DNA from: an uncultured Pseudomonadota bacterium
GTDB lineage: Bacteria > Pseudomonadota > Alphaproteobacteria > RUG11792
Direction: 5' to 3'
NCBI GenBank assembly: GCA_902795615.1
Contig: CADBLQ010000021.1
Span: 61,073-125,072, forward strand
DNA length: 64,000 nucleotides
In this document: one piece after another, positions 17,371-59,598 of the stretch
Layout: every line of letters starts with the position of its first letter
How positions within the stretch are numbered: the stretch's first letter is position 1
Made by a program: the position numbers and the translations under genes
Notes under the pieces: model-generated
The model's input: only the letters and a program-made list of their open reading frames with translations
Told to the model about the DNA's origin: nothing
Databases searched by the model: none

Positions 17371-20148
17371 TTACCAATTGTCTTTTCGATGAGCATTTCT
17401 AAGAGCATTCATATAACCCGAAGACATTCCGCTTTGGGACGAACTGTCACATTCTGAGTTATTTTGTCCTGAATTATTTAGTCGGTACTGACTCCTGTTC
17501 TGTTCAGCTCGTATACGACTTTCTAATACAGCACGTGGTAGCCCACCATATACTGTACCTGCACCAGTCTGAAATCGCTCGTGGAAATCGAAATAGTCAC
17601 CTGGGAAAATAAAATCTTCCCCATTTCGTCTAGGTGATCTATCCTGCTGATACGATTCATACTCAGGGCGAGGAATACGACCAAAGATTGTTTTACTGTT
17701 ATAGTTATTATTTTCCGAAGAGTTATCTTCCAGTCTCTGAGTTGTCGTAGCGGTATTATTACGATATTCCTCAAGGTTTTGCTTTTTGTTATAAGAAACA
17801 TTTTTAGTACCGTTACTACTTGTGGTATTAGTATCTTTTTCATACGGTTCACACAGCTTTTCATACCTTTGCGCTATGTTTTTCAGTTTATCCAAGCATT
17901 TTCTAGACATTCCCGCATACGTGTCTGAGGCTTCAGTACAAATAGTTTTAAACCTTGCTTTACTAAAACAGCCTTCCACTCTATATAGTTCAATCTCACG
18001 CTCTTTTTTATTCTCAACTCCTTTTTCGCCGGCAAGACCTTCAGCTTTTAGAAAGTCAGTCTTTGTCATAGGAGTCTGATTGCTCAGTTTGCAATATTTC
18101 CGATACATGGAGTACGTATCGTCCAACGCACTTTCAATTTCATCACAATAAGTATAATAATAAGACATACTTCTTATATAAGAGGATATTGTAGCGGTAA
18201 ACACTGGACTGTAATATTTCGTCTTTTCAAAAATAGTCTCGCCATCTTCTTTTCTAACACGACTACCCGTAGTTGTCTCTTCTTTCCAGGTACTATTCAA
18301 ATTTTCTGTGAAATCATATGTTAGTTTATCGAGAAAGCTACAATTAACTTTTGCATATTTAAGTTTGTCGACTACTTTTTTAAGGGTGTTAATTCCCCCT
18401 GTAACGAAATCCGAGCCCTCTGCGTTGTTTTTACTATGAATACACCACTGTTTCACCAATAGAGCAAAAGCATAATTTGGCATCTGACCACCAGATGAAT
18501 CGACCAACACCTGACCTGCAGAGGTAAGCACACCTCTTAGGTCAGAGGAACCGGTCAGCATTAACCATCTACTTATAATTCCCACTACTGTGGGATACGT
18601 TTTATATATTTTATTTAACACTTGCAAAGTGTTTTCCCCTGCTACAGTGTCTTGTATGAAACTCCAAAAGTCAATCGCAGTTGTATTATCATCCGATGGT
18701 CGCCCCTCTTTGTCGAATCCATACAGTGTGCATATAACACGGAATAACCGCCAAATTTCGTAGGAGTACTCCGGGTTATTATCCATCTTTTTATTAACTT
18801 CATCACACAACGCTGTGTTGTTAACTTGAGTACCTTTATTCAATTTACCAAACGATTTGTCCACTTGTTCCAGTATTTTGTTTGTAATATGATCGAATTC
18901 TCTTTTGCACCGACTGGTAATTCCGGATCCGTAATTTAAAAAATAATACATCCAATCTGGTCTCACAATATCTCCCTCATTGGAAAATTTAGCAGGTAAG
19001 TTGTTGTTATTTAGCCATTCTCTGAAGTTTCGCATTATGGCTTGTGCCATTTCCCCCTCATCAAGAAATTCCTTTGGTTCCATATTGTTATCGTATTCTG
19101 GCCTGGAATCCCCGGATTTGTACCGTTTATTTGCATCAGCTAAAAACTTTTCAAACTCTTGAAGATTTTCATTATTTTCTAGTGTTTCAAGGTTACAGCC
19201 GATTACTAACTCTAATTGATCTAAGATATTTTGACCATTGAATACAGTTTCTCGTTTTTTGGTCATTACTGTTGGCTTGGCGTTTCGTTTTTGGGCTGGT
19301 TGTTTATTCGGTTTTTGCCACGGCTGAGTTGTTTTTTCAACTACTGCTGATACAACTGACTTTACAGGTTCGCTATCATTTGTTTTGCCATCTACTAATA
19401 CCCAGAACTGATTTAGATAACACCCGAAATCATGCCGAAAGTAATTTTTATAATCTTTACTGGTAGTAATTGCGATATAATCTCTAATTTTTGCAAGTAT
19501 ATCGGCATCATAATAACCAAACATTTTCAAGTTGCCATCAAGTTTCTTCAACGCCAACTCATATAGTTCAGAAACATCAATCTTTTCTCCGTTTCGCACC
19601 TTTGCTATACTATTGTATATCCCATCACTACACAGAAAACCATTGCATAATGCTAAGACAGTATGCCAAATTTCTGTACTTTCAACTGTTGCATCCATCA
19701 AATTTCTGGTTATTTCTGCACACATACTATCAAGGAAACTGTTATGTTCAATATCACTCGAAGACTGTTCCTTCAATACGATATACTTTAGGTTTTGTAT
19801 AGATTGGTAAAACTTTGAGCTTTTATCTACTAAGGCGTCATATGCCCAGTAGTTACGCAAGTAATTATCGTTGTAAATAAAATTATTGCCTCCATTTGGG
19901 AATAATACATCCTCTGCTTTAGTTCGGATATTTTCCTTAAACTTTTTGTCAATAAAATCAGCAAGATTGGCATTTTTAGACACATTGTTGAACTTGGTTG
20001 TATTACCGCCCAACTTACTTGTTTTGCGGATATTGATTGAACTAGTTTCGTTGTCATAGTTATCAAACGACATGTCCATTGCCTCAGTAACACCTATCAA
20101 TGCGAACAATGATGCAGATAGCAATGTTATCTTTATTGATTTTTCCAT
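17371..20148 (-). CDS. large exported protein, family member A (YWA / HDxxCYLxQF family)
   Basis: A 925-residue protein from the ATG at 20148, placed eight bases after the ribosome site AGGAG. The signal peptide MEKSIKITLLSASLFALIGV ends in TEA. The N-terminal module (about 60-250) carries NIRTKAED, NYWAYDAL, LALCNGFL and HDFGCYLNQFWVL (about 239-251). These elements recur in the same order in the genes at 49989-51716 and 56316-59598. Residues 255-290 are Lys/Gln/Pro rich, like a linker. A block near 143 (C-x-EI-x7-MD-x6-EIW) reappears near residue 455 (C-x-EV-x5-MD-x6-EIW), suggesting an internal duplication. The last 200 residues are Asn, Ser, Tyr and Arg rich and probably flexible. No known enzyme motif is seen. 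An effector or surface role is inference. Confidence 0.75.
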   Translation of the reverse strand: MEKSIKITLLSASLFALIGVTEAMDMSFDNYDNETSSINIRKTSKLGGNTTKFNNVSKNANLADFIDKKFKENIRTKAEDVLFPNGGNNFIYNDNYLRNYWAYDALVDKSSKFYQSIQNLKYIVLKEQSSSDIEHNSFLDSMCAEITRNLMDATVESTEIWHTVLALCNGFLCSDGIYNSIAKVRNGEKIDVSELYELALKKLDGNLKMFGYYDADILAKIRDYIAITTSKDYKNYFRHDFGCYLNQFWVLVDGKTNDSEPVKSVVSAVVEKTTQPWQKPNKQPAQKRNAKPTVMTKKRETVFNGQNILDQLELVIGCNLETLENNENLQEFEKFLADANKRYKSGDSRPEYDNNMEPKEFLDEGEMAQAIMRNFREWLNNNNLPAKFSNEGDIVRPDWMYYFLNYGSGITSRCKREFDHITNKILEQVDKSFGKLNKGTQVNNTALCDEVNKKMDNNPEYSYEIWRLFRVICTLYGFDKEGRPSDDNTTAIDFWSFIQDTVAGENTLQVLNKIYKTYPTVVGIISRWLMLTGSSDLRGVLTSAGQVLVDSSGGQMPNYAFALLVKQWCIHSKNNAEGSDFVTGGINTLKKVVDKLKYAKVNCSFLDKLTYDFTENLNSTWKEETTTGSRVRKEDGETIFEKTKYYSPVFTATISSYIRSMSYYYTYCDEIESALDDTYSMYRKYCKLSNQTPMTKTDFLKAEGLAGEKGVENKKEREIELYRVEGCFSKARFKTICTEASDTYAGMSRKCLDKLKNIAQRYEKLCEPYEKDTNTTSSNGTKNVSYNKKQNLEEYRNNTATTTQRLEDNSSENNNYNSKTIFGRIPRPEYESYQQDRSPRRNGEDFIFPGDYFDFHERFQTGAGTVYGGLPRAVLESRIRAEQNRSQYRLNNSGQNNSECDSSSQSGMSSGYMNALRNAHRKDNW

Positions 20149-20336
20149 TTTAAACACTCCTGTAGCTTACCTATATCATTGTAACCTTATCAAAACGAAC
20201 GTGCAGTATATTTAAACGAAAAAATATTAATTTTTTTCTTTTTGAAATTAATAGAACGGTTTTTGCACAGAAAATTTGCCTAATTCGTATAAATTTCGTT
20301 TAATTAGTGTGTCACTTGACCTTTATAAAAAATCAC

Positions 20337-21599
20337 ATGTTACAAAGTATGAAAATCGAAGGTGGTCATACACTCAATGGAACAGTTACAATTAGTGGAG
20401 CGAAGAACTTAGCCTTACCCGCTATGGTTGCAACGCTACTTACCGACCAGCCAATTATTTTGCATAATGTTCCAGACCTAGCGGACGTTCATTCACTCTT
20501 AGCTTTATTAGAACATTTAGGTTGCTCTTACTCATTTGAGAACCGCACTCTTACTATGTGTACCAAAAATATTGTAACAACTGAAGCTCCATACGATTTT
20601 GTACGTAAAATGCGTGCTTCAATTCTTTGTTTATCTCCGTTAGTGGCACGTTGTGGTTCTGCTGAAGTGTCTCTACCTGGAGGATGTGCTATTGGGTTAC
20701 GAGGAGTTGATCTGCACATACGTACACTTGTCTTGATGGGGGCTGAAGTATCTATAGAAGATGGGTTAATAAAAACTAATGCACCAAATGGTTTAACTGG
20801 CTGTGAAATTGAATTCCCAAAGGTAACTGTTACTGGTACAGAAAACGCTCTTATGGCAGCAGTGTTAGCTAAAGGCACTACATGCTTAATGAACGTTGCT
20901 ATTGAGCCAGAAGTTACAGAATTTGCAAAATTATTAAATCTAATGGGTGCAAAAATAACTGGTATTGGTACATCTACTCTTGAAATAGAGGGCGTAGATA
21001 AACTACATGGGGCAGAATTTGAAATTATTCCTGACAGGATTGAGGCAGGTACTTATGCAATAGCTGCCTCCGCCACACATGGCAGTATATTTTTGAAAAA
21101 TTGTCTTTATGAACATTTACAATACTTTTTTACTGTATTACAACAGACTGGTGCAAACGTTACGAAACAAGCTGATGGTGTATTAGTAAGTAATGGTAAT
21201 GGAATAATACAACCTTATTGTATATATACTGCACCGTATCCCGCGTTTCCAACAGATTTACAAGCTCAGTACACTGTATTAATGTGCTTATGTAATGGCA
21301 CAGCATCGGTAACTGAAAACATTTTTGAAAATAGGTTTATGCATATACAAGAACTAATGCGTATGGGAGCAAGAATATATATTGATGGTAAAACTGCCCG
21401 TATTGTGGGTGTTCCCTCCTTAAAAGGAGCTCCAGTTATGGCAACAGATTTACGTGCCTCCGTTGCATTGATATTAGCAGGATTAGTTGCTGAAGGAACT
21501 ACTACTGTTCATCGGTTGTATCATATAGACCGCGGATACGAAAATATAGATGATAAATTACGTGCCTGTGGTGCAGTGTTAGAAAGGACAAAGCAGTAA
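20337..21599 (+). CDS. murA: UDP-N-acetylglucosamine 1-carboxyvinyltransferase MurA
   Basis: A 420-residue enzyme for the first committed step of peptidoglycan synthesis, moving enolpyruvate from PEP to UDP-GlcNAc. GAKNLALPA near the start provides the Lys-Asn pair. PGGCAIGLR carries the catalytic Cys that fosfomycin modifies. YPAFPTDLQAQ has the active-site Asp, and RIEAGTYAIAA follows. The ATG at 20337 gives MLQSMKIEGG; another ATG four codons on is possible, and no clear ribosome site decides between them. The stop overlaps the ftsY start by one base, so the two are co-expressed. Confidence 0.95.
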   Translation: MLQSMKIEGGHTLNGTVTISGAKNLALPAMVATLLTDQPIILHNVPDLADVHSLLALLEHLGCSYSFENRTLTMCTKNIVTTEAPYDFVRKMRASILCLSPLVARCGSAEVSLPGGCAIGLRGVDLHIRTLVLMGAEVSIEDGLIKTNAPNGLTGCEIEFPKVTVTGTENALMAAVLAKGTTCLMNVAIEPEVTEFAKLLNLMGAKITGIGTSTLEIEGVDKLHGAEFEIIPDRIEAGTYAIAASATHGSIFLKNCLYEHLQYFFTVLQQTGANVTKQADGVLVSNGNGIIQPYCIYTAPYPAFPTDLQAQYTVLMCLCNGTASVTENIFENRFMHIQELMRMGARIYIDGKTARIVGVPSLKGAPVMATDLRASVALILAGLVAEGTTTVHRLYHIDRGYENIDDKLRACGAVLERTKQ

Positions 21600-22432
21600 T
21601 GTCAATATTTGCCCGCTTAAAAAATGCTATATCAGAGATTATTACAGGCAAATCGGCTATCGATATTGAAGAATTTGAAAATTTACTGATTGAAGCAGAC
21701 TTTGGAATAGCATTGGCTTCATCATTGTCAAATAAACTTAGAAAAGGCAATAATATTAAGGAAATTTTAACAGCAGAAATTTTCAGAATATTTGATGGAT
21801 TAATTAAAGATATTAATATATCTGAACATAAGCCACATGTTATAACTCTCTGTGGGGTAAATGGCTCTGGAAAAACTACAACTGTTGCAAAGTTGGTTAA
21901 TAAATTCCATAATCAGCATTTATCTGTAGATGTGGTAGCTTGTGATACATTCAGGGTCGCTGCGGACATACAGCTGGAACGATGGACTAATAAACTAGGT
22001 TGTAAATTATTTAAAGGTATTAATAAAGAACCCGCAAGTGTCGCATATACTGCCTTAAGTAGTACTAAAAGTGATGTGCTGATTATTGATACAGCGGGGA
22101 GATTACCAACTAATTCAAATTTAATGGATGAGTTAGGAAAAATTTACCGTGTTCTCAAAAAAATTGATAATACTGCCCCTCATCTTAATTTAGTTGTAAT
22201 AGATGCAGTTACTGGGCAAAATGCTATTGAACAGGTAAAATCATTTAATGCCGTTGCCAAAGTTGATGGGGTGATTTTAGCTAAGTTTGACACGGGAGCA
22301 AAAGGCGGTACAATAGTTCGCATTGCGAATGAATTGCGGATACCTATATATGGAGTAGGCACGGGAGAAAAAGCGGAAGACTTTGAACGTTTCAGTATCG
22401 AAAAGTTCATCGCGAAGTTAATTGAGGAGTAA
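21599..22432 (+). CDS. ftsY: signal recognition particle receptor FtsY (short form)
   Basis: A 277-residue SRP GTPase. The short N domain (DIEEFENLLIEADFGI) leads to the P-loop GVNGSGKTTTVAKL at 86-99, then DTFRVAAD, DTAGRLPT and KFDTGAKGG, which read as FtsY rather than Ffh. Ffh would continue into an M domain, and this protein ends after the G domain. The acidic A domain of many FtsY proteins is absent, as in several alphaproteobacteria and reduced genomes. It brings ribosomes making membrane proteins to SecYEG. The next gene follows after two bases with a GAGGAG ribosome site. Confidence 0.93.
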   Translation: MSIFARLKNAISEIITGKSAIDIEEFENLLIEADFGIALASSLSNKLRKGNNIKEILTAEIFRIFDGLIKDINISEHKPHVITLCGVNGSGKTTTVAKLVNKFHNQHLSVDVVACDTFRVAADIQLERWTNKLGCKLFKGINKEPASVAYTALSSTKSDVLIIDTAGRLPTNSNLMDELGKIYRVLKKIDNTAPHLNLVVIDAVTGQNAIEQVKSFNAVAKVDGVILAKFDTGAKGGTIVRIANELRIPIYGVGTGEKAEDFERFSIEKFIAKLIEE

Positions 22433-22434
22433 AA

Positions 22435-24538: not shown

Positions 24539-24659
24539 TTTAATGCCTAAATATTCCCATTCACAAGCATAGTAGCACTACATATAATTGGCATTGACAC
24601 AATTCTAAAATAGTTAGTACACTCATTTATGTATATAGGGGCAAGGTTACTAAATCATT

Positions 24660-26090: not shown

Positions 26091-26199
26091 ACTGACAACA
26101 GAGACTAAGCCCTACTAGTTTGTCGCGGTATCAGCTGACATGCTATCCTTGTTGTTGTTATAGTGTGTATTTTAAACATAATAAGTATTAGGAGATTTT

Positions 26200-26535: not shown

Positions 26536-26547
26536 AATGGGGACTAA

Positions 26548-28149: not shown

Positions 28150-28157
28150 GAGACAGT

Positions 28158-29116: not shown

Positions 29117-29123
29117 CTGTTAC

Positions 29124-33063: not shown

Positions 33064-34233
33064 TTAGTGAGATATGTGGTTTGTGCCGTAGCCGACGGCT
33101 TCACGTTTTTCAGCATCAGTAAGGAATGTTGCGGTATTAATTTTTCTCCATTCGGCTTCACGTCGTGTAACCAGTGCAGGAATTGAATCCATATCGTATG
33201 TCAATGTGAGGTCTGTTTTATACATTTGCTTGAACCAAACTGAAAATTCATTTGCAATTATGTTAAGTAACGGCAGTACTGTTTCTTCCCAGAAATTGTA
33301 TCGTGCTTCTTTGTAATTAGCGAATGTTGCAGAACTCATATTACTTATAAGTATTGGCGGAACACCAAATGCTAAAGCAATTTCTTTAGATGCCTGTTCT
33401 TTGCCATCAATAAAATCCAAATCTTTTGGTGATAATCCCATTTCTTTCCATTCAAAGTCTCCCTCAAGTAGCATTACCTTGCCAGCATTTCTACCTCCTT
33501 CGTATAATGCTCGTAAATCACGTTTTAATTCCTGACGTAACTGTGGTTCAAGTTCATGTTTATATATTAACGCTCCTGATGGACGACCGCCATTTTGCAA
33601 AAACGATATGTTTTGTTGAGCAATAGCATTATGCTGTTGTATGGATTTTAATGCCACTTCAATAGGACTTGTGCCATACCAGTCATCAAGTGGATTAAAC
33701 AATTTTATATGTAATATATCGGACTCGCCAGTGTCAGCATCAACAGGAAAAAATCTAACATGGTTACTAACGGTATACTCGTAACCTGCGGGGACGGCAT
33801 ATCGTCCGGGAATTATGTTAACTCTATCAGGACGCAATAAATGCAATTCATTAGGTAAGTCATTCATACCTCTAGTTGCCATAACATAACAATTACCAGA
33901 TATTAGGAGTTGAGATATCGCATCTTCCATAAATGCAGTTTTCGATTGGTGGGTATTTGGTCGTTCAATTAGTGACAGAATGGAATGTTTATAAACTATG
34001 CTATCTACACCATCTTTAACTTCCCTCAGTAACCAATTCACTGAACCTATAGCTCTAGCAATTAAGTTTACGCATCTGAATACTACAACATTTTGTTTAT
34101 ATCCGTTATTAGATAGATTATAATAATCAATATTCATGTTGGACTTGACAGGCTTATATGAAATTATTGAACTATTATCATACAATGAACCATGGTTATT
34201 AGATGCAAACCTACTAAAAATATTTTTAAACAT
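33064..34233 (-). CDS. HK97-family phage portal protein, isolated (gene-transfer-agent-like)
   Basis: A 389-residue portal protein with a near-perfect ribosome site (AAAGGAGG) before the ATG. Portal signatures are VVFRCVNLIARAIGSVNW near 50-67, PNELHLLRPDRVNIIPG, NPLDDWYGTSPIEVAL, then ISFLQNGGRPSGAL and GVPPILI near 290. Portals form the ring through which DNA enters and leaves a phage head. No capsid, terminase, protease or tail gene stands beside it. In alphaproteobacteria, gene-transfer-agent genes are sometimes dispersed like this, so a remnant or domesticated agent is more likely than a prophage. The intact frame and strong ribosome site argue for continued expression. Confidence 0.9.
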   Translation of the reverse strand: MFKNIFSRFASNNHGSLYDNSSIISYKPVKSNMNIDYYNLSNNGYKQNVVVFRCVNLIARAIGSVNWLLREVKDGVDSIVYKHSILSLIERPNTHQSKTAFMEDAISQLLISGNCYVMATRGMNDLPNELHLLRPDRVNIIPGRYAVPAGYEYTVSNHVRFFPVDADTGESDILHIKLFNPLDDWYGTSPIEVALKSIQQHNAIAQQNISFLQNGGRPSGALIYKHELEPQLRQELKRDLRALYEGGRNAGKVMLLEGDFEWKEMGLSPKDLDFIDGKEQASKEIALAFGVPPILISNMSSATFANYKEARYNFWEETVLPLLNIIANEFSVWFKQMYKTDLTLTYDMDSIPALVTRREAEWRKINTATFLTDAEKREAVGYGTNHISH

Positions 34234-44937: not shown

Positions 44938-45819
44938 ATGTTAAAAAAAACATTACTTATTATGCCTCTTATTAATGTTTCTTATTTAGTTGCAAATAAT
45001 GCCAGTATTGCTAGTAATGCAGGTGGTATCCTTACATCGTCATCTGATAACGAAATTAACCTGTCGTTGCACGATGATTCAAATGGACTTAATCAAACTA
45101 ATGATGAAATTTCAGCTGAATCTGAAAATAAAGACATAAAGTCGACCAATAAAGAATTATCTGCAAATCTCAATATAAATAACATTATAGTGCAGGAAAA
45201 TAACGTGGATAATGGTGGAAAGTTATTGATACAAAAAATTACAACAGAAGAACCTAAGGAGAACGAAGATATACCAGATGACGAGATTACAGAGGATTTA
45301 ACAAAAAACCTTAATATCAATGAAATTTTACGGCAAAAATCTAGTACTGAAAATACACGGAGCAAACAAATCAAAATAAGAACTCAATCTTTTGTAAAAA
45401 ATGCATTAAAAACTGAATTTAGTAAAAAAAAAGCAAAATTGGCTAAGGAACGACGAACTGTAGAACGATTAAATGCTTTATCAGTCGGAGAAAAAGAACA
45501 AAAAATGCGTGCTACACATGAACAATTTTCCCAATCCTGTCAAGACTTCATTCACAAGTCATTTACAACAGGAATAGTTGATTTGAAAGATAAATCGTTT
45601 TTTAAAACAAGAACTGCTCCTCTATGTGTGTTTTTTGGCTTTGATTTAGCACAAATTTTTAGAAATGAAATTACTTTTAATACTGCACTAGAGTATTACA
45701 AAGATTTACCAAATTTTACTAATGTACTTGTTGATATGAATGCAGTGCATCGAAAGCTCACTAGTGATACGGAAAAGCGTAAAAAAATTATGATAAAAAA
45801 GGGATTTTTAAAACCATAA
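44938..45819 (+). CDS. exported protein of unknown function (P3)
   Basis: A 293-residue protein with ribosome site GGAGAAGT before the ATG. The signal peptide covers about residues 1-19 (MLKKTLLIMPLINVSYLVA). Residues 20-140 are low-complexity, Asn/Ser/Asp/Glu rich and probably disordered. They carry two copies of NLNIN(N/E)I, near 77 and 124. The C-terminal half is basic and folded-looking: RLNALSVGEKEQKM near 177, SCQDFI near 200, and TAPLCVFFGF to NAVHRK near 226-273. The last block resembles part of P2, with APxCV and a downstream D-LP motif. No function is known. It stands 40 bases before pyrH on the same strand. Confidence 0.7.
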   Translation: MLKKTLLIMPLINVSYLVANNASIASNAGGILTSSSDNEINLSLHDDSNGLNQTNDEISAESENKDIKSTNKELSANLNINNIIVQENNVDNGGKLLIQKITTEEPKENEDIPDDEITEDLTKNLNINEILRQKSSTENTRSKQIKIRTQSFVKNALKTEFSKKKAKLAKERRTVERLNALSVGEKEQKMRATHEQFSQSCQDFIHKSFTTGIVDLKDKSFFKTRTAPLCVFFGFDLAQIFRNEITFNTALEYYKDLPNFTNVLVDMNAVHRKLTSDTEKRKKIMIKKGFLKP

Positions 45820-47361: not shown

Positions 47362-49479
47362 TCATACCCAATCATCATCGTCATTTTGAGAATTATTAAT
47401 GGATTCATTTTCGTAATCAGATGTTACTTTCATATCGAACTTACTGGCGTCATCCTCTTCATAATCACCCACCGCCAAGTGCAAATTTAAAACCCGAATA
47501 ATTTCACAATGATTACCACTAGAAAGCCCAAGTACATATCCTTTATCTACGGCATGATCGTATATGATTACAATATCTTCGATCCATTCGGTAAAACCTA
47601 TTCCGAATGTTTCACCAGACCATTCTATGTTTTGATCAAAAATGTAAGTCATTGCGTCCTTTTTACTAGAATATTTTTTATCTTTCATCAAGAGTTCTAC
47701 TTTGAATCTTTCTACATTGGTGGCACCTTCGGGGCAAAATTTTTTATAAATGTTATTCATTGCCGTTTCCAATATTTTCCATGGAACTATGTTATTGTTT
47801 TTGGCAATACCAACATATTCAATTCCATCCTCTCCGAACGATTTTTCGTAGGATTTTTTATCCACATCTATGTCTTTATGACCTCCGTTGCAAATACTTT
47901 GGCTAATTATATCAATTACGTAACATATAGTTTCCAAACCCGAATCTATTTGTGGTATTGGCTCCTTTAATGTTTGTCCCCCACTTTCTGTTTCATTTGA
48001 AGAAAGTTTGTTATTTTTATTTTCAAAATATTCGTCAATTATTTTACGAAGAACTTCATCCCGCCAAGAAGTATGTTTATAAGAATTTATGATACCTGAC
48101 TGTGGCTCCTTTAGTTCAAATAAACATTTTTCTGCAATCGGATTTATGCTATCTTTTTTGTCTTTTTTATCCTTGTATGCAGGTCTCAAAGCTATAGTTA
48201 TTAAGTGTCTTATCAAATTTTCAGTACAACTACCAGAGAGTGCACCGAACTTGCCGTTTTTCTGCAATTTTTCGTACGTCTTATACTTAGGGGAGAAACT
48301 ATACGGTACTGGACGACAATCATATTCTCTTGAATATATTCCTTCTTTTCCTTTGTTTACTAATAAATCTTTAATTTGATTGTTTTCTTTACCAGTAGTA
48401 ATGTAGGTTGCTATGTTGATTGAATTAATAATATTTTTAAGGTCTGACTCTACGTCGCAAATACACAAAAGGTATATAATTCTTGCTAGCTTGTCTGTAA
48501 TGGATCCTAAGTTTACAAAATCGTTTAAACCTGAGTTAATATCCTTGTTATATATGAATTTAATTAAATTTTCTGTTATTTTTAACAACTCCGACAATTT
48601 TTTGTTCTTACTTATATGTTGTAGCTTTGCTTTCTTTTTAACACCTATTTTTTCTAAATTATTTTTTAGAACCGTTACTAATTTTTCTTTATCATCTTTC
48701 GGTTCATTATTGTCATCTTTCTCTTTTAATTCATTGTATAGATCTTTTATTTCATTGTATAGATCTTTTACCACTTCTGTTTCTTCCTTACCCTTTTCTA
48801 TCGCCTGTTGTGCAGATTTTACCGATTTTATGAACTTATATAATTTTGAATACTTTTCAAATAAAGTAGCTGCAAATGATTGCTTTGACGACAAACTGGC
48901 TCCAAGGGAACACATTTTGTCGCCAATACTTACACTAAACCCTATTGACGTATCAAAAAATTTTTTGTCGTGGTCTAGTGTTTCTTTCGGATCAATATCC
49001 TTAAAAGAATTGTTAATAGTGTCTGGAACAAGACCACTACTTTGCCAATCCACCATTCGGTATTGTCCTTCATCTGTGTAAATCATATCCAATATAGCTT
49101 TTTCTTTTTCCGTTGGTTTATCATCTTCTTTTTCTTTAACATTTTTATTTTTAACATTTTCCTTTTTGTTTGTATTTATTTCGTTATCTACTTTAATTTC
49201 ATTTATCATTTCATCGTCATATTCTTTAACTGTTTTGGATTCTTCTTCGTACTCATTTTTATTTATTATTTCATCTTTTTTGGTATTTTCCTTCTTTAGC
49301 TCGAGAGCCTTGTTTTGTGCGTCTTTATCTTTTCTTTCTTTATCCTCGATGCCGATTGCTTCTAGTAGTTTTGGTAGATAAGCTTTTGCAACTGCATACG
49401 GAACTCGACTTTCAACACTATTAATACTGATGCTAGTTATTGCCACCACTGATAGCAACCATTTATTTTGTATACGCAT
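47362..49479 (-). CDS. large exported protein with charged coiled-coil region (P6)
   Basis: A 705-residue protein with ribosome site GAGGG before the ATG. The signal peptide is MRIQNKWLLSVVAITSISIN, ending VES. Residues 45-125 are a Lys/Glu/Asp/Asn-rich, probably helical and disordered region. Residues 205-300 form another charged helical region with a tandem DLYNE(I/L)K repeat. The C-terminal 400 residues look folded. GALSGSCTENLIRHLITIAL near 410 has a Cys followed by an Arg-His pair, and GFTEWIEDIVIIYDHAVDKG plus GNHCEII come near 640-680. I do not recognise the fold. The Cys and His could serve catalysis or metal binding, which is speculative. The tail is strongly acidic. Confidence 0.7.
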   Translation of the reverse strand: MRIQNKWLLSVVAITSISINSVESRVPYAVAKAYLPKLLEAIGIEDKERKDKDAQNKALELKKENTKKDEIINKNEYEEESKTVKEYDDEMINEIKVDNEINTNKKENVKNKNVKEKEDDKPTEKEKAILDMIYTDEGQYRMVDWQSSGLVPDTINNSFKDIDPKETLDHDKKFFDTSIGFSVSIGDKMCSLGASLSSKQSFAATLFEKYSKLYKFIKSVKSAQQAIEKGKEETEVVKDLYNEIKDLYNELKEKDDNNEPKDDKEKLVTVLKNNLEKIGVKKKAKLQHISKNKKLSELLKITENLIKFIYNKDINSGLNDFVNLGSITDKLARIIYLLCICDVESDLKNIINSINIATYITTGKENNQIKDLLVNKGKEGIYSREYDCRPVPYSFSPKYKTYEKLQKNGKFGALSGSCTENLIRHLITIALRPAYKDKKDKKDSINPIAEKCLFELKEPQSGIINSYKHTSWRDEVLRKIIDEYFENKNNKLSSNETESGGQTLKEPIPQIDSGLETICYVIDIISQSICNGGHKDIDVDKKSYEKSFGEDGIEYVGIAKNNNIVPWKILETAMNNIYKKFCPEGATNVERFKVELLMKDKKYSSKKDAMTYIFDQNIEWSGETFGIGFTEWIEDIVIIYDHAVDKGYVLGLSSGNHCEIIRVLNLHLAVGDYEEDDASKFDMKVTSDYENESINNSQNDDDDWV
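48730..48770. repeat. two-copy 21-base in-frame repeat inside P6
   Basis: A 20-base unit beginning TTCATTGTATAG and ending ATCTTTTA occurs at 48730-48749 and again at 48751-48770, period 21 bases. It encodes the doubled heptad DLYNE(I/L)K, so it lengthens a helix without shifting frame. Confidence 0.9.
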
Positions 49480-49621
49480 TTGACCCTCAATTGTGTAATT
49501 ATATCTACACTAAGGTTACCGATATATCATTAAATTTACGTTAATCCCTTACAACTAACATATTGAAGTAGCAGAGAACAAGCGTAGATATAGTTCATCG
49601 TAAACGGCCCGCTATATATGA

Positions 49622-49870: not shown

Positions 49871-49988
49871 TATTGCCTCACGTTAGTTTTTCTACTGCCA
49901 TTGTAATACAGATGCTTTACGCATAACAACGTTATGTTTCCTAATTATATTGTTCTGTGTTAAAATACGATATAGATATTGTAAGAAT

Positions 49989-51716
49989 ATGAAAATTATG
50001 AATAAATTAATACCTCTGTTAAAACCCTTAATTATATTGCCTATAACTATAACTATATTAAATCAAAATTGTGTATATTGCGAGATCAAAAATGCTAAAA
50101 CCTGGATAGAAAGAATAAGCTTCGTTGATTTAACAACTGGAATAGGAAAAACAATTAGTAATGCTATAGATAATAATATTCGTGCTAAAGCAGAGACACT
50201 TGGTGAAAAAGGTAAGGATTATTGGGCATGGAGAGCGATTAATAAAGAATTAATTGCTAAGAAAGACTTTGTAGCTCTTAAATGGAGGTCTTCTATTGAA
50301 TATTTGAAAAAGATGGTTGTAAGTGTATTTTATCGTTCGGAAAAGTTTGCTTATCTTAATGATTTTTATGGGGATACATTACAGCACATATCAGGTGTAA
50401 TCAACAATTGCTACTTAAAAAAAATTGATTGGTACAACGATTTCAACACCAAACAAAAAATATTTGGACTATTAAATGGTGTATTTGTCCTATTATTGTT
50501 AGACGAGAATGTACGTTGTGTTAGTAATAACAACGTTTATAAATATAGTTCAGTTACTAAAATGTTCGATAAAGAACATCCGCAATATAAAAATGGCATT
50601 TTTGGCAAAATTCGTTCTGTGATGCAAAACATTAAAATAAAATCAGACAGTAGAAGAACAAGAACATTATTTGAAGAAATATTACTTCAATTTAATAATG
50701 ATGAAAAAAAGTTCAAAGACTACTTTACACATGATGTACGATGCTACTTAGAACAGTTTAATGTTGTTGCTCGAAGAGACATAACAAGTGATAATACTAA
50801 CGTTACCTGCGATTCGGTGATTGAACAATATGTCCGAACTTGTTACTTGAAAGAAAAATGGATGCAAAAGGTAGCTAATGATAACTTTACACATAAATAT
50901 CCTCAACTTTTGTTATTGCATAAGCCTGCATCAAACCATAAAGTCCTTTCTAACTGGCTTAATGACGAGTGCCAACATGAAGTGTATAAGGTTTGCAATG
51001 AAGGAATTGATATTTGGCTAAGCCAAAAGATTCCAAATCTCGAAAACATTATTAATCGATATAACGAGTGTATCAAGCATAGTTGGCACTCCGAATTTAA
51101 ACATTATGTAAAAATAGATTATGACGACTATGATTTCTTGATGTTTATAAGTGAACTGACAAAGTATGATACTAAAAATGATGCACAATATGAAATTTTT
51201 AGTGAACGTGCTTGTGGTTTTTTAGCAGGTTGTTTATTGCAGGGAATACATACTTGGGAGACAGACACACAAATGGTTTTACACACGCCCTTACTTGGTT
51301 GTGATAATGTTAGGCATTTAAGACCAATCGACATTCTGAGACTTACCACCCATTCTTATTCTTATCTACAAAGTTGTGTGATGAACAAAATGCACCAGAA
51401 TAAACGTTATAGCAATTTGCAGAATAATGTTCTATCGAAATGTAATTTAATAATTAATGATACGTTTGAGTATATAGTATTTAAAAAGCTTACAAACGTA
51501 AATGTGGATAGTGTTATCAAATTGATTAGGTTTCTGATCAACAAGAAAATTGACGATATAATATATGATTTAGACGAACATGGCTTCGGGCCACATGGTC
51601 GCGAGTTGAAAATCTATTCTTGGCAATCAATATTAGAATCTTTAATTGATAAAAGTTGTGGCTTGGAAGAAAAAGATTTTTCAAAAATAGTTGAAAGAGT
51701 TATAAAGTTAAAATAA
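49989..51716 (+). CDS. exported protein, family member B (YWA / HDxxCYLxQF family)
   Basis: A 575-residue protein from the ATG at 49989; another ATG three codons later is possible, and neither has a strong ribosome site. Residues 1-31 form a signal peptide-like stretch ending CVYC before EIKNAK. The N-terminal module matches the genes at 17371-20148 and 56316-59598: TGIGKTISNAIDNNIRAKAE, then DYWAWRAI near 77, IFGLLNGVFVLLLL near 157 and FTHDVRCYLEQFNVV near 247. The C-terminal 300 residues are not obviously shared and hold several Cys and His residues (AGCLLQGIHTW, DEHGFGPHGREL). Function is unknown. It overlaps the convergent DUF167 gene by nine bases, so its 3' end has no space for a terminator. 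Confidence 0.75.
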   Translation: MKIMNKLIPLLKPLIILPITITILNQNCVYCEIKNAKTWIERISFVDLTTGIGKTISNAIDNNIRAKAETLGEKGKDYWAWRAINKELIAKKDFVALKWRSSIEYLKKMVVSVFYRSEKFAYLNDFYGDTLQHISGVINNCYLKKIDWYNDFNTKQKIFGLLNGVFVLLLLDENVRCVSNNNVYKYSSVTKMFDKEHPQYKNGIFGKIRSVMQNIKIKSDSRRTRTLFEEILLQFNNDEKKFKDYFTHDVRCYLEQFNVVARRDITSDNTNVTCDSVIEQYVRTCYLKEKWMQKVANDNFTHKYPQLLLLHKPASNHKVLSNWLNDECQHEVYKVCNEGIDIWLSQKIPNLENIINRYNECIKHSWHSEFKHYVKIDYDDYDFLMFISELTKYDTKNDAQYEIFSERACGFLAGCLLQGIHTWETDTQMVLHTPLLGCDNVRHLRPIDILRLTTHSYSYLQSCVMNKMHQNKRYSNLQNNVLSKCNLIINDTFEYIVFKKLTNVNVDSVIKLIRFLINKKIDDIIYDLDEHGFGPHGRELKIYSWQSILESLIDKSCGLEEKDFSKIVERVIKLK

Positions 51717-52055
51717 TGTTTTCGGCAAGTTATCAAGTTCACTTTTCAAAATTTTTTGAATTTTGTTGGGTATATCATTAATACTAAATTTACGTAGACA
51801 AAGCTTTTTTTGTCTAGATTTACTACCAGAAATTATATCTATATGGGATTTTGGTGTATCGAATATATCTGAAATGAATTTTATTAGATCTATATTTGCT
51901 TGATTTTCAATAGGTTTTCCATGTACTGCAATTTTGATACTAATATTATTAGCATTTTCATATCTTACACCATTAATACTGTTTTTACTTGAACCAGGTG
52001 TTAAATATATACAGAATATTAAATCGTCTGAGTGTTTAGTAAAAATTCTATGCAT
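51708..52055 (-). CDS. DUF167/YggU-family protein
   Basis: A 115-residue small protein of the YggU family. IYLTPGSSKNSINGV matches the family start (v.l.P.a.r..i.g). HGKPIENQANIDLIKFIS matches the central G-x-A-N-x2-l segment, and ISGSKSRQKKL the last strand. Its molecular role is not known. It overlaps the end of cckA by eight bases and so is probably co-expressed with the kinase gene. Confidence 0.85.
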   Translation of the reverse strand: MHRIFTKHSDDLIFCIYLTPGSSKNSINGVRYENANNISIKIAVHGKPIENQANIDLIKFISDIFDTPKSHIDIISGSKSRQKKLCLRKFSINDIPNKIQKILKSELDNLPKTLF

Positions 52056-54384: not shown

Positions 54385-54586
54385 AATTAATTGTAAACGA
54401 AATATTTACTTCTAATAATAATGATACCCCATTTATCAAAAATATTTGTTAACTTACGGAATTAGCAATTTAAACAGCTTATAGCGTTGAGAATATACGA
54501 AGTTAGTGACAAAAAATTGCTTTTTATGCTCACGAAGACAAAGTACCCCAAAATTTTATAGAAACTTTAAAAAGTATGAAAGGAAA

Positions 54587-54606
54587 TGCCCTGTAAGCAG
54601 GGCATC
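54587..54606 (-). terminator. rho-independent terminator after rpmA
   Basis: ATGCCCTG and CAGGGCAT form an 8-bp GC-rich stem with a four-base loop, nine bases after the rpmA stop. Leftward, a U-rich stretch (TTCCTTTC) follows. Confidence 0.75.
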
Positions 54607-54615
54607 AAAAATTGA

Positions 54616-54873
54616 CTACGCTATGGGTCTAACTCCTACGTAAGTTCTAGCACCTGAACGAGTTTTGAAATACACATTCCCATCAACTAAGGAAAAAATC
54701 GTGTGGTCTTTGCCCAATCCGACATTTTCATCCAATCTATATTTTGTACCACGTTGTCTGACTAAAATAGAACCAGCAAGTACGTATTGGCCTGCACCAC
54801 ACTTTAAACCTAAACGACGACCTGCTGAATCTCGACCATTTCGAGAACTACCTGCACCTTTTTTTGTAGACAT
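54616..54873 (-). CDS. rpmA: 50S ribosomal protein L27
   Basis: An 85-residue ribosomal protein near the peptidyl-transferase centre. [20 protein letters not shown] is the standard start, then [11 protein letters not shown] and [13 protein letters not shown] strong AAAGGAG precedes the ATG. It sits in the usual rplU-rpmA pair and is closed by a terminator. Confidence 0.98.
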
Positions 54874-54886
54874 ATTTTATTCTCCT

Positions 54887-55201
54887 TTATTTATTAGAAA
54901 TATCAATAACCTTTACCAATGTCATTGGCTGACGATGCCCTTTTTTACGACGGTAATTATGACGACGATGTTTTTTGAAAATAATCACTTTATCATTACG
55001 CATCTGACGTATAACTTGTAATTTAACAGATGCTCCATTAACGATAGGATTACCAATCTTAACATCTTTATCATTGGAACACATCAAAACATCTGAAATT
55101 TCAAAAGTAGCATCAGGTGCTAGGTCAACTTTATTTATCTTTATTACATCGCCTGGTTTTACACTATATTGTAATCCACCTGTCTTTATCACCGCAAACA
55201 T
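54887..55201 (-). CDS. rplU: 50S ribosomal protein L21
   Basis: A 104-residue ribosomal protein. FAVIKTGGLQYSVKPGDVI at the start and KKHRRHNYRRKKGHRQPMT near the end are signature segments. It lies 13 bases before rpmA on the same strand, the common pairing. Confidence 0.98.
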   Translation of the reverse strand: MFAVIKTGGLQYSVKPGDVIKINKVDLAPDATFEISDVLMCSNDKDVKIGNPIVNGASVKLQVIRQMRNDKVIIFKKHRRHNYRRKKGHRQPMTLVKVIDISNK

Positions 55202-55260
55202 ATTTTAAAAAGCTATCTATACAAAAACTACGCTCAGTGTAACATGCTGACAAAAAGAGT

Positions 55261-56220
55261 TCAACTGAACACAGTTTTTAGTACATCGTATAGATCTGTA
55301 TCCGTTTTAACAGAATTATTAGACATGAGAGACCGAAACTTTGTAGCATTTGGTCGTCCCTTACAGTAGTACATAACGACTTTTTTTGCTAACGTAAAAG
55401 CTACATGTTTATCATAGAAATTCAGTACCGATGCTACATGCTCTTTTGCAACGTTAAGTTTCTCATTGTCACTTAACTGCTTAACTATTTTACCATTTAG
55501 GGCATTATCGATATCTCTAAGTAACCATGGTTTTCCTAATGCTCCACGACCAATCATTACGCCATCAGCCCCACTATCTATTAATGCTTGTTTTGCTTTT
55601 TCAGTGTCCGCTATATCGCCATTTACAATTAGGGGAATGTTAATTATGTTCCGTACTGTATGTACAGCTTTCCAATTAGCAACACCACTATACAATTGAG
55701 AACGGGTTCGTGCATGAACTGTAACCATTTTAATTCCTTCATTCTCTGCAATGTGAGCTATTGTTGGAGCGTTTAGGTGGTTATCATCCCAGCCAAGGCG
55801 AATTTTTAAAGTTACTGGAAGAGGTGTTGCATTAACCACGGCATGTATAATCTGCTGTGCCAATTTTTCATCTTTCATAAGAGCTGAACCCGCATCGGTT
55901 TTAACTATTTTTTTTACAGGACAGCCCATATTAATATCTAATATTTTTGCTCCTAAATCGTAACTTAACTTAGCTGCTTCTGCCATTACATGTGGAACAG
56001 CCCCAACTAATTGAACAGCTGTATATGCATCACTGTTTGCATCCATTATTTTATGTGTACGAGCGACATTTCTAATGACTGCCTGACTAGCAACCATTTC
56101 GCTATACATTAAAAAATTTCCAAATTTCCGTACCACTTGCCTAAAAGGTAAATCAGTAACCCCCGCCATTGGTGCTAATAACACGTTAGATTGTAACTCT
56201 ATATTGCCAAGTTTAATCAT
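55261..56220 (-). CDS. dusB: tRNA-dihydrouridine synthase (DusB family)
   Basis: A 319-residue FMN enzyme reducing uridine to dihydrouridine in tRNA D-loops. LLAPMAGVTDLPFR near 14-27 is the flavin-binding start. DINMGCPVKKIVK carries the catalytic Cys, VTLKIRLGWD follows, and IVNGDI, then DGVMIGRGALGKPW, form the phosphate grip of the barrel. The short C-terminal RNA-binding part is present. In the alphaproteobacterial DusB/NifR3 group it often sits near regulatory kinases; here cckA is four genes on, without clear linkage. Confidence 0.94.
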   Translation of the reverse strand: MIKLGNIELQSNVLLAPMAGVTDLPFRQVVRKFGNFLMYSEMVASQAVIRNVARTHKIMDANSDAYTAVQLVGAVPHVMAEAAKLSYDLGAKILDINMGCPVKKIVKTDAGSALMKDEKLAQQIIHAVVNATPLPVTLKIRLGWDDNHLNAPTIAHIAENEGIKMVTVHARTRSQLYSGVANWKAVHTVRNIINIPLIVNGDIADTEKAKQALIDSGADGVMIGRGALGKPWLLRDIDNALNGKIVKQLSDNEKLNVAKEHVASVLNFYDKHVAFTLAKKVVMYYCKGRPNATKFRSLMSNNSVKTDTDLYDVLKTVFS

Positions 56221-56264
56221 ACAGTTTTATTAATACATTTCATACTATAATCGTATATGAAATA

Positions 56265-56297
56265 ACGTACTACTGTAAAAGTTTCTCAGCAGTACGT
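56265..56297 (-). terminator. hairpin after the broken family-C gene
   Basis: ACGTACTACTG (56265-56275) and CAGCAGTACGT (56287-56297) form an 11-bp stem with one G-U pair and an 11-base loop, 19 bases beyond the last stop of the leftward pseudogene. Its survival suggests the gene decayed recently. Confidence 0.6.
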
Positions 56298-56315
56298 ACG
56301 TTTGTAATACGATAA

Positions 56316-59300
56316 TTAAACTATTACTGATTCTAAATAGTGCAAGATGTCAAGTACAGATTTTATTTCTTTATCATGTTGTTGCAGTATCTTAAATATT
56401 ATATTATCCGCTTTTTTCCTATTGCCATCGGTTTCGGCTAATACCCTACCAGCAGTATAAAACAGAATGTCTATATGATAGTACTGTAACTCTTTCTTGA
56501 AGGTTCGAAGGTAGTTATGTAATTTACAACATAGGTCAATCAAATTAGTTGTTTCTTTTGTATTAGAACGGTTACACGATAAGTCTCCCGAATCAAATAA
56601 GTGTTTAATATTACCGATAATGTTTTTAAAAACTGCATTAATATCTTTTATGTTTATATCCTTAAAATAAGAGGCTAATGGAAATTGTTCTATAAAAAGA
56701 TATAGATGCCAATATACCTCTGTTGGTAAATTATATTCATTCCTGAGCTTCTCCAGTTCTTCAAATAAGGAATTAGTTATTTTTTTAGTGAGTTCCCAAA
56801 CGTTCACATCTTTTGGGTTGTATAAGAATCTTGTATAGCAACGAGCATTTGGTGCATACGACACCGTTACCGCTAGTTTTAGTAATTCCTTAAACTTTTC
56901 TGTATCATGGTTTAAGTCTTTAATCATACTCGGAGATATACCCAATTCTTCTGAGTTATTTAAAAATTTGTATGTTTCTAAAAACTCACGCATTTTTTTT
57001 GCAGTATAATAAATTATTGTTGTTATATCTTCATTTTTAAGTATTTTCGTCGTTTTAAAAGAGGGCTTTTCTATACAACAATGGCTAATAATCTCCCAAT
57101 ACTTAATAAAATCTTCAAATGACATTTTATTTGCACATTTTTTGATATGATCCCACAATATTTTTTTTGTTCGTCGGAAAAACTCTTTTCTATCGTTTCC
57201 TTTGTTATAAACTGCAGATTTGCGGGTATTTTACAATACTCTGAGGTTGTTTCTTCTACAAAGTTTTGAACAGAATTAATAACGTAATTGTAATAGAGTG
57301 TCTCTTCATATGCGTTGTCATTATCATCATCACAAAACAACCTTTTAACAGCATCACGTGGTTTTCTTACACCGTATTCACAGCCCTCGACATATATGTT
57401 ATTAATAGCCTTTACCGCAAGTTCGAAATCATTCGCAGTTTCGTCCAATAAACGCTTGCTATAATCAACGACGGCCTCGTTATCTAATAACGGCTTTTTT
57501 TTAAACTTTCTTTTGAAAGCTCAACTGAAAGCTTAACGAAATTCCTCATCCATTCAGCAGTTCGCAAATTTAGAGCGTCGTACGAGAATCGGTCTTTGTT
57601 AGGGAGGACACACTGTTTTATAATTTCTTTTATATTGTCAAGGTTACAGTTTCTCTCCATTATAAAAAATTGTGCCAATGACAATATTGTATTTAGTTTA
57701 ATTTCTGTACGTTCATTTACATAATGAGCCTTTGTTTTTTTGTCAGCATTACTAAACTGATTGATAGCAACGCGTAATTCTTCAAGTTTCTTAGCTATTT
57801 CTGGTTTCAGTTTCATTTGAGAGGACTCGTTTTCCAAAAAGACTTATTCATTATTCTTACGGGTACCTCTTGGCTGTTTTCACACGACATATTTTCTGAT
57901 TTTTCTTCAGGCTCATCTTTATAGAACCAATCCTTCACAGTATTTTGATTTTTGTACAAAAATGTAGATGCCAGCTTCAGTTCAATAACTTTATTTGTCC
58001 ATTCTTTTTCTACGTTATCTTCAGAAGAATCAATATCAATGGAATCTTCTTGCTCTACTTCAAGTGATTTTTCAGACTCTTCTTCGCCTTTTGCACTATT
58101 CGCTTCCTTATTTAAAAAACGCTTACCAAAATCAGTATTAATGTCAATAATTCTATTGAGTCTGTCAGTTAACTTGATAATATTATCAATAACCCATTCC
58201 GGTCTATCATCAGCCGATATCCTATTGTAGTCTTCTACTAAACCAGACGCTCTTAGTAAAATGTAATCTATTGCAAACTTTTTTGGAGATACATTCAACT
58301 GTACAAGTGTTGTAAACGTTTTCGTAAATTCGTTATATTCATTGGTTGTGTCATACTTGTTAATTTTGGAACTAAAACTCAGCAGATACATGTCTTTAAA
58401 AATTTCTGTAAATTCTGTTGCATCTAGACTCGCCCCATTTAGGAAATGATAAGCTTCTCCAAAATAGTCTGCTACCTATTTTAATATCGGGTAATCACTT
58501 TTAATTTTAATTTCGTTTGTAGTATTAATTTTGAGGTTAACATTACTCTTATTATTCTTAATATTCTTATCTTCTATCTTAAAGCGAGCCGTTGGCTCGA
58601 TCTTGAACATCTTATCAATTGTGGATGCATTTTCATCGATACTTTAGTTATTAACACTTCGGCTATAGTTACTGTTTTTTCTTTGTTGTTGTTGCTTATT
58701 GCCGTCTTGATTATTTATTCTTTGTTGAGAACTAATCTCTTCTTCATAGTGTTCTCTTCTTATCTCTGTTGCTACTTTGTCAAACACAGACTCAAGCACA
58801 GTTTGTCCGTGTATCTGGTACCGACAAATAACAAAGAATTGAGTTAAGTAGCAATCCCAATCGTGTTTGATGTATTGTTTCAACTTTTCTTCATCACCAC
58901 CAAAATATCTTTCACAAAGCGTTCTATACCAACTATCTTGTTTGCTTTCGTAAAACACTTCTGTAAATAATGCACCCACTTTATCCATTGTCATTTTGTC
59001 CTTCGGTTTTGAACCACCATATTTCTCATTAAATCTGTATAACGTTCTAAAGGCTGTTAGTCCATTTATTAACCCGAAAATCCTCTTTCCACTTTCACTC
59101 TCTAACCATTCTCCTCCACTTTCTGCCGTCCCTTCCTTATTTTCCTCATGATTGATGCTTGTTTCATCAGCTTTCTGAAGTTCACTTATCTTCCTATTAA
59201 ATCCTTCAATTACACTTTTACGATACCCTTTATGTCCTGCCCTTTCCCAAACAGGAGTAAACAATTTCTTTAAATTATCTATACTGTCACTATACTTTTC

Positions 59301-59598
59301 TGACCTAGCCCAGTACTTACCATTAATCAATGCTTTTTCATATTTTTTAGTGTTACTCTCTACCGTTTTTGCAACAACACCAATGTTTTCATTAAAGGCA
59401 TCATTTACTATCCTTCCTAAACCTTCTTCTAAGTCAGTTGAAGCAATATTAATGGTCTCTTTCATAGCCTTAGAGCTATCTTCATTAATCGTATTGTCTT
59501 GACCTTTGTTAAGATGTATAAGCAAAGTTGGTTGCAGTAACAGCAAGCGTTACCAGCGTCATTAGAGACAATTTTAATAAAAATCCTGAATGCTTCAT
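56316..59598 (-). pseudogene. broken gene for an exported protein, family member C
   Basis: The ATG at 59598 has a strong ribosome site (AGGAGAA) and encodes a signal peptide starting MKHSGFLLKLSLMTLVTLAV, but the frame hits a stop at 59511-59509. Skipping one base there reaches a frame reading NKGQDNTINED and then the family module: FNENIGVVAK, GKYWARSEKY, IFGLINGLTAF and IKHDWDCYLTQFFV. That frame then meets TAA (58646-58644) and TAG (58478-58476), yet stays open afterwards to about 57840. Three more shifts follow, at a T5 run (complement of 57836-57840) and two A8 runs (57495-57502 and 57161-57168 on this strand). Each needs one extra base to continue. Restored, the gene would encode about 1,090 residues. 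The later open pieces start only at TTG codons within the old frame, so they are fragments, not genes. Confidence 0.8.

What the first reader, a model, noticed from the sequence alone, without database searches (positions are those of the whole stretch)
17371..59598. Exported protein family defined by YWA, xxLxNG and HDxxCYLxQF motifs (members A, B, C)
Genes at 17371-20148, 49989-51716 and the broken gene at 56316-59598 lie far apart and differ greatly in length. All have signal peptides and the same ordered N-terminal elements: N-I-x6 basic start, YWA, a hydrophobic (G/A)L(L/I/C)NG block and (F/I)xHDxxCYLxQFxV. The invariant His-Asp-x2-Cys in an exported module could be a binding or catalytic site. 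The C-terminal parts are unrelated to each other, as expected if a shared targeting or anchoring module carries different cargo.
Basis: partly seen in the sequence, partly recalled or inferred. Interest (0 to 1): 0.85.

Follow-up and report, generated by a model that had tools for sequence, protein, structure and literature searches.

The report
Symbiont effectors sharing one N-terminal module
Three genes in a tiny-genome bacterium belong to a family of about fifteen genes whose proteins share one N-terminal module, mostly behind a predicted export signal, joined to very different back ends; four of the fifteen, and one relative in a sister species, carry domains of the eukaryotic ubiquitin-removing type, and the proteins are likely sent out to manipulate a eukaryotic host cell.

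Summary
A (17371-20148), B (49989-51716) and C (56316-59598, broken) share a ~260-residue N-terminal module, predicted all-helical; HDxxCYxxQF occurs three times in six frames against 0.00016 expected. No convincing Pfam, NCBIfam, PHROG or PDB match. Fifteen module ORFs lie in this 759-kb genome (about 5%), 12-17 profile matches in each of two sister genomes, none reliable in 32 other genomes of the bacterial family or 24 of other families. Of 406 module pairs 246 are significant, only 14 of those also in cargo. Five members carry 1-3 eukaryote-type ubiquitin-specific protease (USP) domains; five copies, in three of them, show both catalytic boxes by pattern. The bacterial family has ATP/ADP-translocase-family proteins (31 of 34 genomes) and TolC-type proteins (33 of 34) but no VirB4 (0 of 34). 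Best reading: an exported effector arsenal of an intracellular energy parasite, one delivery or targeting module with interchangeable cargo. In both sister genomes identical DNA, at the module end or in a presumed linker, leads into two different cargos. Export route, module role and host are inferred.

The parts
19324..20145 (-). Gene A (17371-20148): signal-peptide-like start plus N-terminal module
   Evidence: profile match; export-signal heuristic
19405..19434 (-). A: HDFGCYLNQF motif
17371..19323 (-). A: linker and C-terminal cargo (about 650 aa), no believable Pfam match and no PDB sequence match
49989..50093 (+). Gene B: signal-peptide-like start
   Evidence: low pLDDT residues 7-34
50094..50879 (+). 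B: N-terminal module, predicted nearly all helical, residues ~36-297
   Evidence: AlphaFold2 models
50730..50759 (+). B: HDVRCYLEQF motif
50901..51713 (+). B: predicted helical cargo domain, residues 305-575, moderate confidence, no fold match
59512..59598 (-). Gene C: signal-peptide-like stretch, in another frame than the module
58755..59546 (-). C: N-terminal module (open stretch 58644-59546)
58836..58865 (-). C: HDWDCYLTQF motif
56316..58643 (-). C: degraded cargo region, open stretches in several frames with stops between them

Best explanation
A, B and C are members of a genus-specific family of proteins, most with an export-signal-like start, that join one shared ~260-residue N-terminal module, predicted to be helical, to interchangeable cargo, including eukaryote-type ubiquitin-specific protease domains, and they likely act as effectors inside a eukaryotic host cell. 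Shown: the module, its 15 copies here and its copies in two sister genomes; cargo that differs while the module is kept; USP domains behind the module in five members, five copies in three of them with both catalytic boxes; an enrichment of signal-peptide-like starts; ATP/ADP-translocase-family and TolC-type proteins but no VirB4 in the bacterial family. Inferred: the proteins cross the inner membrane by Sec and then leave by a TolC-like or other non-type-IV route; the module is the common passport (secretion or host-targeting part) and not an enzyme; the USP cargo removes host ubiquitin, for example from the bacterial surface or from host proteins that would mark it for destruction; the other cargos hit other host targets; new effectors arise when recombination at the end of the module or in the linker joins it to new cargo, and old ones decay, as C has.
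For: Family and module. Module kept, cargo not: 29 modules, 406 pairs, 246 significant (E<1e-3), of which 14 are also significant in cargo. Export: 22 of 27 frames pass a signal-peptide-like test at their first Met against 29 of 113 other ORFs of at least 250 aa in the window and fetched stretches. USP: PF00443 E 4e-38 to 2e-87 in five module proteins (L039, L040, L042, L046 in this genome, L055 in G001); L040 vs human USP2 E 4e-29, Cys and His boxes aligned; both boxes by pattern in 2 copies of L039, 1 of L040, 2 of L042. USP is rare in the class sample: 3 of 289 genomes, two of them this genus, 0 of 14 controls. Host-dependence: PF03219 in 31 of 34 family genomes, 26 of them at E<1e-100 (1e-189 here), 0 of 14 controls. 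Route: VirB4 0 of 34, OEP/TolC 33 of 34. Recombination or recent copying: in G001 one 99-bp sequence ends contig C8 (module) and begins C2 and C6 (two cargos), a second 99-bp sequence begins two other cargos; in G002 an identical 87 bp begins two contigs with different USP cargos.
Against: No secretion, localisation or activity has been measured. Most cargos, including those of A, B and C, match nothing known. One further weak USP match in this genome (784-aa ORF, E 9e-6) has no significant module. The two G002 USP ORFs begin at contig starts, so their module is not seen and calling the shared 87 bp a linker is inferred. The module copy at the G001 C8 end is itself in two frames, so it is not a working source of two cargos as assembled. 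The three g7 USPs looked at lack the module and seven from g3/g6/g15 carry a different N-terminal part, so the module is not needed for an exported-looking USP. TolC also serves drug efflux, so its presence is weak evidence for the route. Five of the 31 PF03219 matches are weak (E 1e-15 to 1e-32) and the Pfam family also holds other nucleotide carriers (recalled). The signal-peptide test is a simple heuristic. L046, L055 and one copy of L042 do not show both USP boxes by the pattern used.
Confidence: 0.7

Rival explanations
1. The proteins stay on the bacterium: the module is a periplasmic or outer-membrane anchor and the back ends are surface adhesins or scavenging enzymes that work outside, not inside, a host cell.
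For: Signal-peptide-like starts without VirB4 (type III and VI systems were not searched); Asn/Gln-rich linkers would suit surface display.
Against: USP domains have no obvious substrate outside the eukaryotic cytosol, and five members carry them. Anchor signals were not tested.
Confidence: 0.17
2. The module is not a delivery part but a binding domain for one host structure (for example a vacuole or nuclear component); it brings all cargos to the same place after export by the signal peptide alone.
For: Three g7 USPs look exported without any such module, so the signal peptide may be enough for export; the module is predicted as a compact helical fold.
Against: No known binding fold matched, which is weak evidence.
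Confidence: 0.3
3. The module is an enzyme with an HDxxC active site.
For: His, Asp and Cys are conserved in most members.
Against: His is Asn in at least two members and Cys is Ile in one, all with open frames, whereas Asp and Tyr are invariant in 32 rows; no enzyme family matched consistently.
Confidence: 0.04
4. They are polymorphic toxins used against other bacteria: constant front, variable toxic tip.
For: The architecture, constant N-terminus and variable C-terminus, is that of polymorphic toxins (PMC3482391, start of abstract seen in a search listing).
Against: The only cargo identified acts on ubiquitin, which bacteria of this kind lack (recalled). No toxin domain came up in Pfam; PADLOC was not searched and immunity genes were not looked for.
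Confidence: 0.05

Closest known systems
Eukaryote-type USP proteins of Amoebophilus asiaticus (PMC8831229, passages read)
   Same: Intracellular symbiont with a putative ATP/ADP translocase that encodes predicted ubiquitin-specific proteases and many other eukaryotic-like proteins.
   Different: By that paper A. asiaticus has two predicted USPs, many ANK/TPR/LRR proteins and a T6SS; here USPs sit behind a shared N-terminal module, up to three in one protein, in a 0.76-Mb genome, and no ANK or TPR match over the cut-off was seen in the members scanned.
Rickettsia RARP-1, the Sec-TolC effector (PMC8023194, passages read)
   Same: Alphaproteobacterial effector with an N-terminal Sec signal leaving by TolC rather than by a type IV system; TolC-type proteins are present here.
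   Different: RARP-1 has ankyrin repeats; TolC dependence is untested here. Whether RARP-1 has a part like this module was not compared.
Polymorphic toxin systems (PMC3482391, search listing only)
   Same: Constant N-terminus, tips exchanged by recombination.
   Different: The cargo identified here is eukaryote-directed; no immunity partner was sought.
Order Rs-D84 / Candidatus Enterousia, reduced-genome Alphaproteobacteria of farm-animal guts (PMC12306168, whole main text read)
   Same: Membership is my inference, not tested.
   Different: The paper's main text mentions neither USPs, a module family nor an ATP/ADP translocase; its supplements were not seen.

Membership tests
Ubiquitin-specific protease (Pfam PF00443), cargo of five module proteins | Profile match above the curated cut-off | tested here: met
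   131.8-293.5 bits against 23.9 in 5 of 5
Ubiquitin-specific protease (Pfam PF00443), cargo of five module proteins | Catalytic Cys box and His box | tested here: met
   in three of five proteins: both boxes in 2 copies of L039, 1 of L040 (also aligned with USP2) and 2 of L042; by pattern only a Cys box in L046, only a His box in L055 and in the third copy of L042
Ubiquitin-specific protease (Pfam PF00443), cargo of five module proteins | Deubiquitinase activity | not testable with these tools
   needs an enzyme assay
Ubiquitin-specific protease (PF00443), for A, B and C themselves | Profile match | tested here: not met
   no UCH match in A, B or the pieces of C
Any described family for the N-terminal module | Significant match in Pfam, NCBIfam or PHROGs by several members | tested here: not met
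   each match up to E 0.01 is to 1 of 27 members, best E 0.0016
Any solved fold for the N-terminal module | Structural match | tested here: inconclusive
Type IV secretion effectors | VirB4 ATPase in the genome | tested here: not met
   0 of 34 family genomes, 1 of 14 controls positive
Sec-TolC effectors (RARP-1 type) | Sec-type N-terminal signal | tested here: met
   22 of 27 vs 29 of 113 other ORFs, by a heuristic only
Sec-TolC effectors (RARP-1 type) | TolC homologue | tested here: met
   OEP family in 33 of 34 genomes
Sec-TolC effectors (RARP-1 type) | TolC-dependent release | not testable with these tools
   needs a secretion assay
Sec-TolC effectors (RARP-1 type) | Ankyrin-repeat domain | tested here: not met
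   no ankyrin match in the members scanned
Polymorphic toxins | Immunity gene beside the toxin tip | not tested
   -

The most novel reading that the evidence does not exclude
A family of gut symbionts runs on cargo-swapping effector machines: at least four genera have each amplified a version of one ancestral exported N-terminal module (up to about 45 matches in a genome) and keep joining it, by recombination at the module end, to new cargo such as captured eukaryotic deubiquitinases, so that cells of one population carry alternative cargos behind the same front end.
Probability: 0.3. Interest if true: 0.88.

Novelty: new variant of a known kind. Interest (0 to 1): 0.7.

Why it matters
It gives a little-characterised group of reduced-genome bacteria a concrete way of dealing with a eukaryotic cell: an ATP/ADP-translocase-family carrier to draw energy and a genus-specific arsenal that includes eukaryote-type deubiquitinase domains. 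It turns the open question of what these bacteria live in and how they survive there into testable predictions, and it names an undescribed protein module that may be a delivery tag independent of a VirB-type secretion system.

Tried and rejected
Catalytic HDxxC: rejected as main reading because H and C vary in members with open frames. Known domain: no consistent match in Pfam, NCBIfam, PHROGs, PDB sequences or Foldseek PDB/BFVD; a missing fold match does not show that the fold is new. Homologues in 5.8 billion proteins: only two B orthologues besides B, in three searches; the searches did not return the sister-genome members, so this says little about absence.

Homology of the type-1 module (this genus) and the type-2 module (genera g3, g6, g15): not significant at first (prob 0.65%, E 0.087; P 0.012, prob 3.6%). 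On well-filled columns block-shuffled controls reached the score in 0 of 200 with signal-peptide columns and 2 of 300 without (P 0.0013), but neither profile finds a member of the other set below E 0.1. Left as suggestive. A possible bridging protein in this genome (L131, 784 aa, weak USP match) is not significant for either module.

Signal peptides: a first test over many start codons did not discriminate (24 of 28 members vs 19 of 34 window ORFs). I replaced it by a first-Met test with a lower hydrophobicity threshold (1.6 instead of 1.8), left out L065 (its start is cut off by the contig end) and widened the controls to all loci then in hand; type-2 frames pass in 22 of 35. The controls are mechanical ORFs, some of them not genes.

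A USP tree puts g1 and g7 USPs together and g3/g6/g12 apart, with weak inner support and no eukaryotic sequences, so the origin of the USPs was not settled. Literature: in the listings of nine searches (4 to 20 titles shown each) I saw no paper on this module family or on USPs in this lineage; most subscription papers and all preprints are not held.
Full report
WHAT WAS CHECKED. The three genes carry the motifs as described. A: open frame 17374-20166 minus, ATG at 20148. B: open from 49950 to 51716 plus, ATG at 49989. C: module in the open stretch 58644-59546 minus, with a signal-peptide-like stretch (from 59598) in a different frame and a downstream region whose open stretches lie in several frames with stops between them, so C is a broken copy. 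B alone finds C at E 3e-6 and a fourth gene on another contig at E 1e-30. In six frames of the window HD..CY..QF occurs three times, once in each gene, against 0.00016 expected from residue composition.

THE FAMILY. The window is part of contig C21 of a 759-kb, 94% complete genome of 25 contigs. A profile of six N-terminal modules gave 16 matches here, 15 in G001 and 12 in G002, the two other genomes of the genus in the search; of 32 genomes of other genera in the bacterial family one gave a marginal match (E 0.02), of 24 from other families none at E<=0.1. A 27-row profile gave 15, 17 and 14 matches in the same three genomes and two marginal ones (E 0.008, 0.009) among 32 other family genomes. 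Matches are not genes: some are pieces of one broken gene, and one in G001 and three in G002 are weak (E 0.002-0.01). From the stretches fetched, 36 open frames of at least 200 aa bear the motif, 15 of them in this genome (C counted by its module stretch), summing to 13,125 codons from stop to stop, about 5% of the assembly. Among 5.8 billion proteins three searches returned only B and two orthologues of B; since members of the sister genomes were not returned, that is no measure of spread.

THE MODULE. AlphaFold2 on B's module with 27 sequences gives an all-helical domain but for two short strands, pLDDT 78.8, pTM 0.76, best from about residue 40 to 260; the full-length model adds a hairpin and helix to residue 297 and a separate helical cargo domain at 305-575 with moderate confidence (pLDDT 71.6, pTM 0.73). 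No convincing fold match was found, nor any consistent family match in Pfam, NCBIfam or PHROGs. In the 32-row alignment only the D and Y of HDxxCY are invariant, with H and C at 90% or more; at least two members have N for H and one has I for C. This speaks for a structural motif and against a catalytic one. Of 27 members with a usable start, 22 pass a simple signal-peptide test at their first Met, against 29 of 113 other ORFs of at least 250 aa.

THE CARGO. Behind the module the frames differ in length (35 residues in C's open stretch to 1446; some are cut by contig ends) and mostly in sequence. Of 406 pairs among 29 modules, 246 are significant at E<1e-3; only 14 of those are also significant in cargo, 19 cargo pairs in all. 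Of the best-scoring pairs with cargo matches, three join G001 with G002 and may be orthologues, and others share the one cargo that could be named: a ubiquitin-specific protease domain, PF00443, in one to three copies in L039 (1366 aa), L040 (879 aa), L042 (1720 aa) and L046 (1282 aa) of this genome and L055 (1444 aa) of G001, E 4e-38 to 2e-87. L040 aligns with human USP2 over the catalytic domain, E 4e-29, with Cys box GATCFRN on GNTCFMN and His box NAHF on GGHY. By pattern both boxes are seen in two copies of L039, one of L040 and two of L042; L046 shows only a Cys box, L055 and the third copy of L042 only a His box. The stretch between module and USP is 41% Asn+Gln in L039 and L040, 12-25% in the others, against 9.5% in window ORFs. 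A, B, C and the other members scanned have no believable Pfam match.

THE BACTERIUM. USP domains occur over the cut-off in 16 of 35 genomes of the bacterial family (17 of 59 in the whole call) and 0 of 14 controls, but in only 3 of 289 genomes drawn across the class, two of them of this genus. PF03219, the ATP/ADP translocase family (name recalled; the call prints TLC), is found in 31 of 34 family genomes, 26 of them at E<1e-100 (1e-189 here) and five weakly, and in 0 of 14 controls. VirB4 is found in 0 of 34, OEP/TolC in 33 of 34. Type III and VI systems were not searched. The window has an H+-pyrophosphatase and an anaerobic ribonucleotide reductase. With a nucleotide translocase and deubiquitinase domains the likeliest partner is a eukaryotic cell, for example a rumen ciliate or fungus (inferred).

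HOW IT MAY WORK. Signal peptide and module lead the protein out; without VirB4 a Sec plus TolC path like that of Rickettsia RARP-1 (PMC8023194, passages) is the simplest candidate, untested. The module would then be the constant passport and the cargo the working part. Deubiquitination would protect the bacterium or rewire the host.

HOW NEW MEMBERS ARISE. In G001 a 99-bp sequence across the HDWDCYLTQFGVINDI codons ends contig C8 (module side) and begins C2 and C6, which continue into different cargos; it occurs nowhere else at full identity in the three genomes. The C8 module copy is itself split over two frames. A second 99-bp sequence begins C10 and, reversed, ends C4, again with two cargos. 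In G002 the first 87 bp of C29 and C15 are identical and lead into two different USP proteins; no contig carrying the module in front of them was found. Such exact shared ends are what an assembler leaves at a fork. They show that identical DNA at the end of the module, or in a presumed linker, is followed by different cargo; they do not tell separate loci from alternative arrangements in a population, and part of a node's contigs may be missing from the bin. Elsewhere in the family the motif's codons differ, so the motif is conserved as protein rather than as a DNA site. Broken copies (C; G001 C1 near 69.6-70.4 kb and the C8 end) show decay.

A PARALLEL CASE. Seven USPs of genera g3, g6 and g15 carry another exported-looking N-terminal part (type 2), itself amplified: 45 matches in G048, 37 in G004, 25 in G021 and in G007, 21 in G045, 15 in G016, 3 in G042, 1 marginal in G013; 8 of 35 family genomes in all. 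The three g7 USPs looked at have neither part. Types 1 and 2 align colinearly (W, SSI, N, D..Y); with signal-peptide columns removed the profile P value is 0.0013 and 2 of 300 block shuffles score as high, yet neither profile detects the other's members below E 0.1. A common origin is suggested, not shown.

VERDICT.

Noticed in passing
G000:C16:5563-7041 and 31 of 34 family genomes: ATP/ADP-translocase-family protein (PF03219), not mentioned in the main text of the paper on order Rs-D84; points to energy parasitism on a eukaryote.
   Followed up: partly
genera g3, g6, g15 (L098-L127): A second amplified exported-looking N-terminal module, with USP cargo in 3 of 23 members scanned and a calcineurin-like phosphoesterase in one; a number of matches lie at contig ends.
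   Followed up: partly
window 33064-34233: A phage portal protein (PF04860, E 5e-78) in a reduced genome; possible gene-transfer-agent or prophage remnant, neighbours not examined.
   Followed up: no
window 47362-49479 and 44938-45819: Two more exported-looking proteins (705 and 293 aa) without the module and without any Pfam match at E 0.001.
   Followed up: no
L067, L065 (G002): NKGSTFNKVNN-like repeats lie before the hydrophobic stretch at the start of two G002 members.
   Followed up: no
L131:700-3051 (G000:C19): 784-aa exported-looking protein with a weak USP match and an HDMHSY motif, possibly a very diverged member bridging the two module types; not significant.
   Followed up: partly
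window 8132-10231, 61704-63713: H+-pyrophosphatase and anaerobic ribonucleotide reductase, as expected for an anaerobic gut lineage.
   Followed up: no
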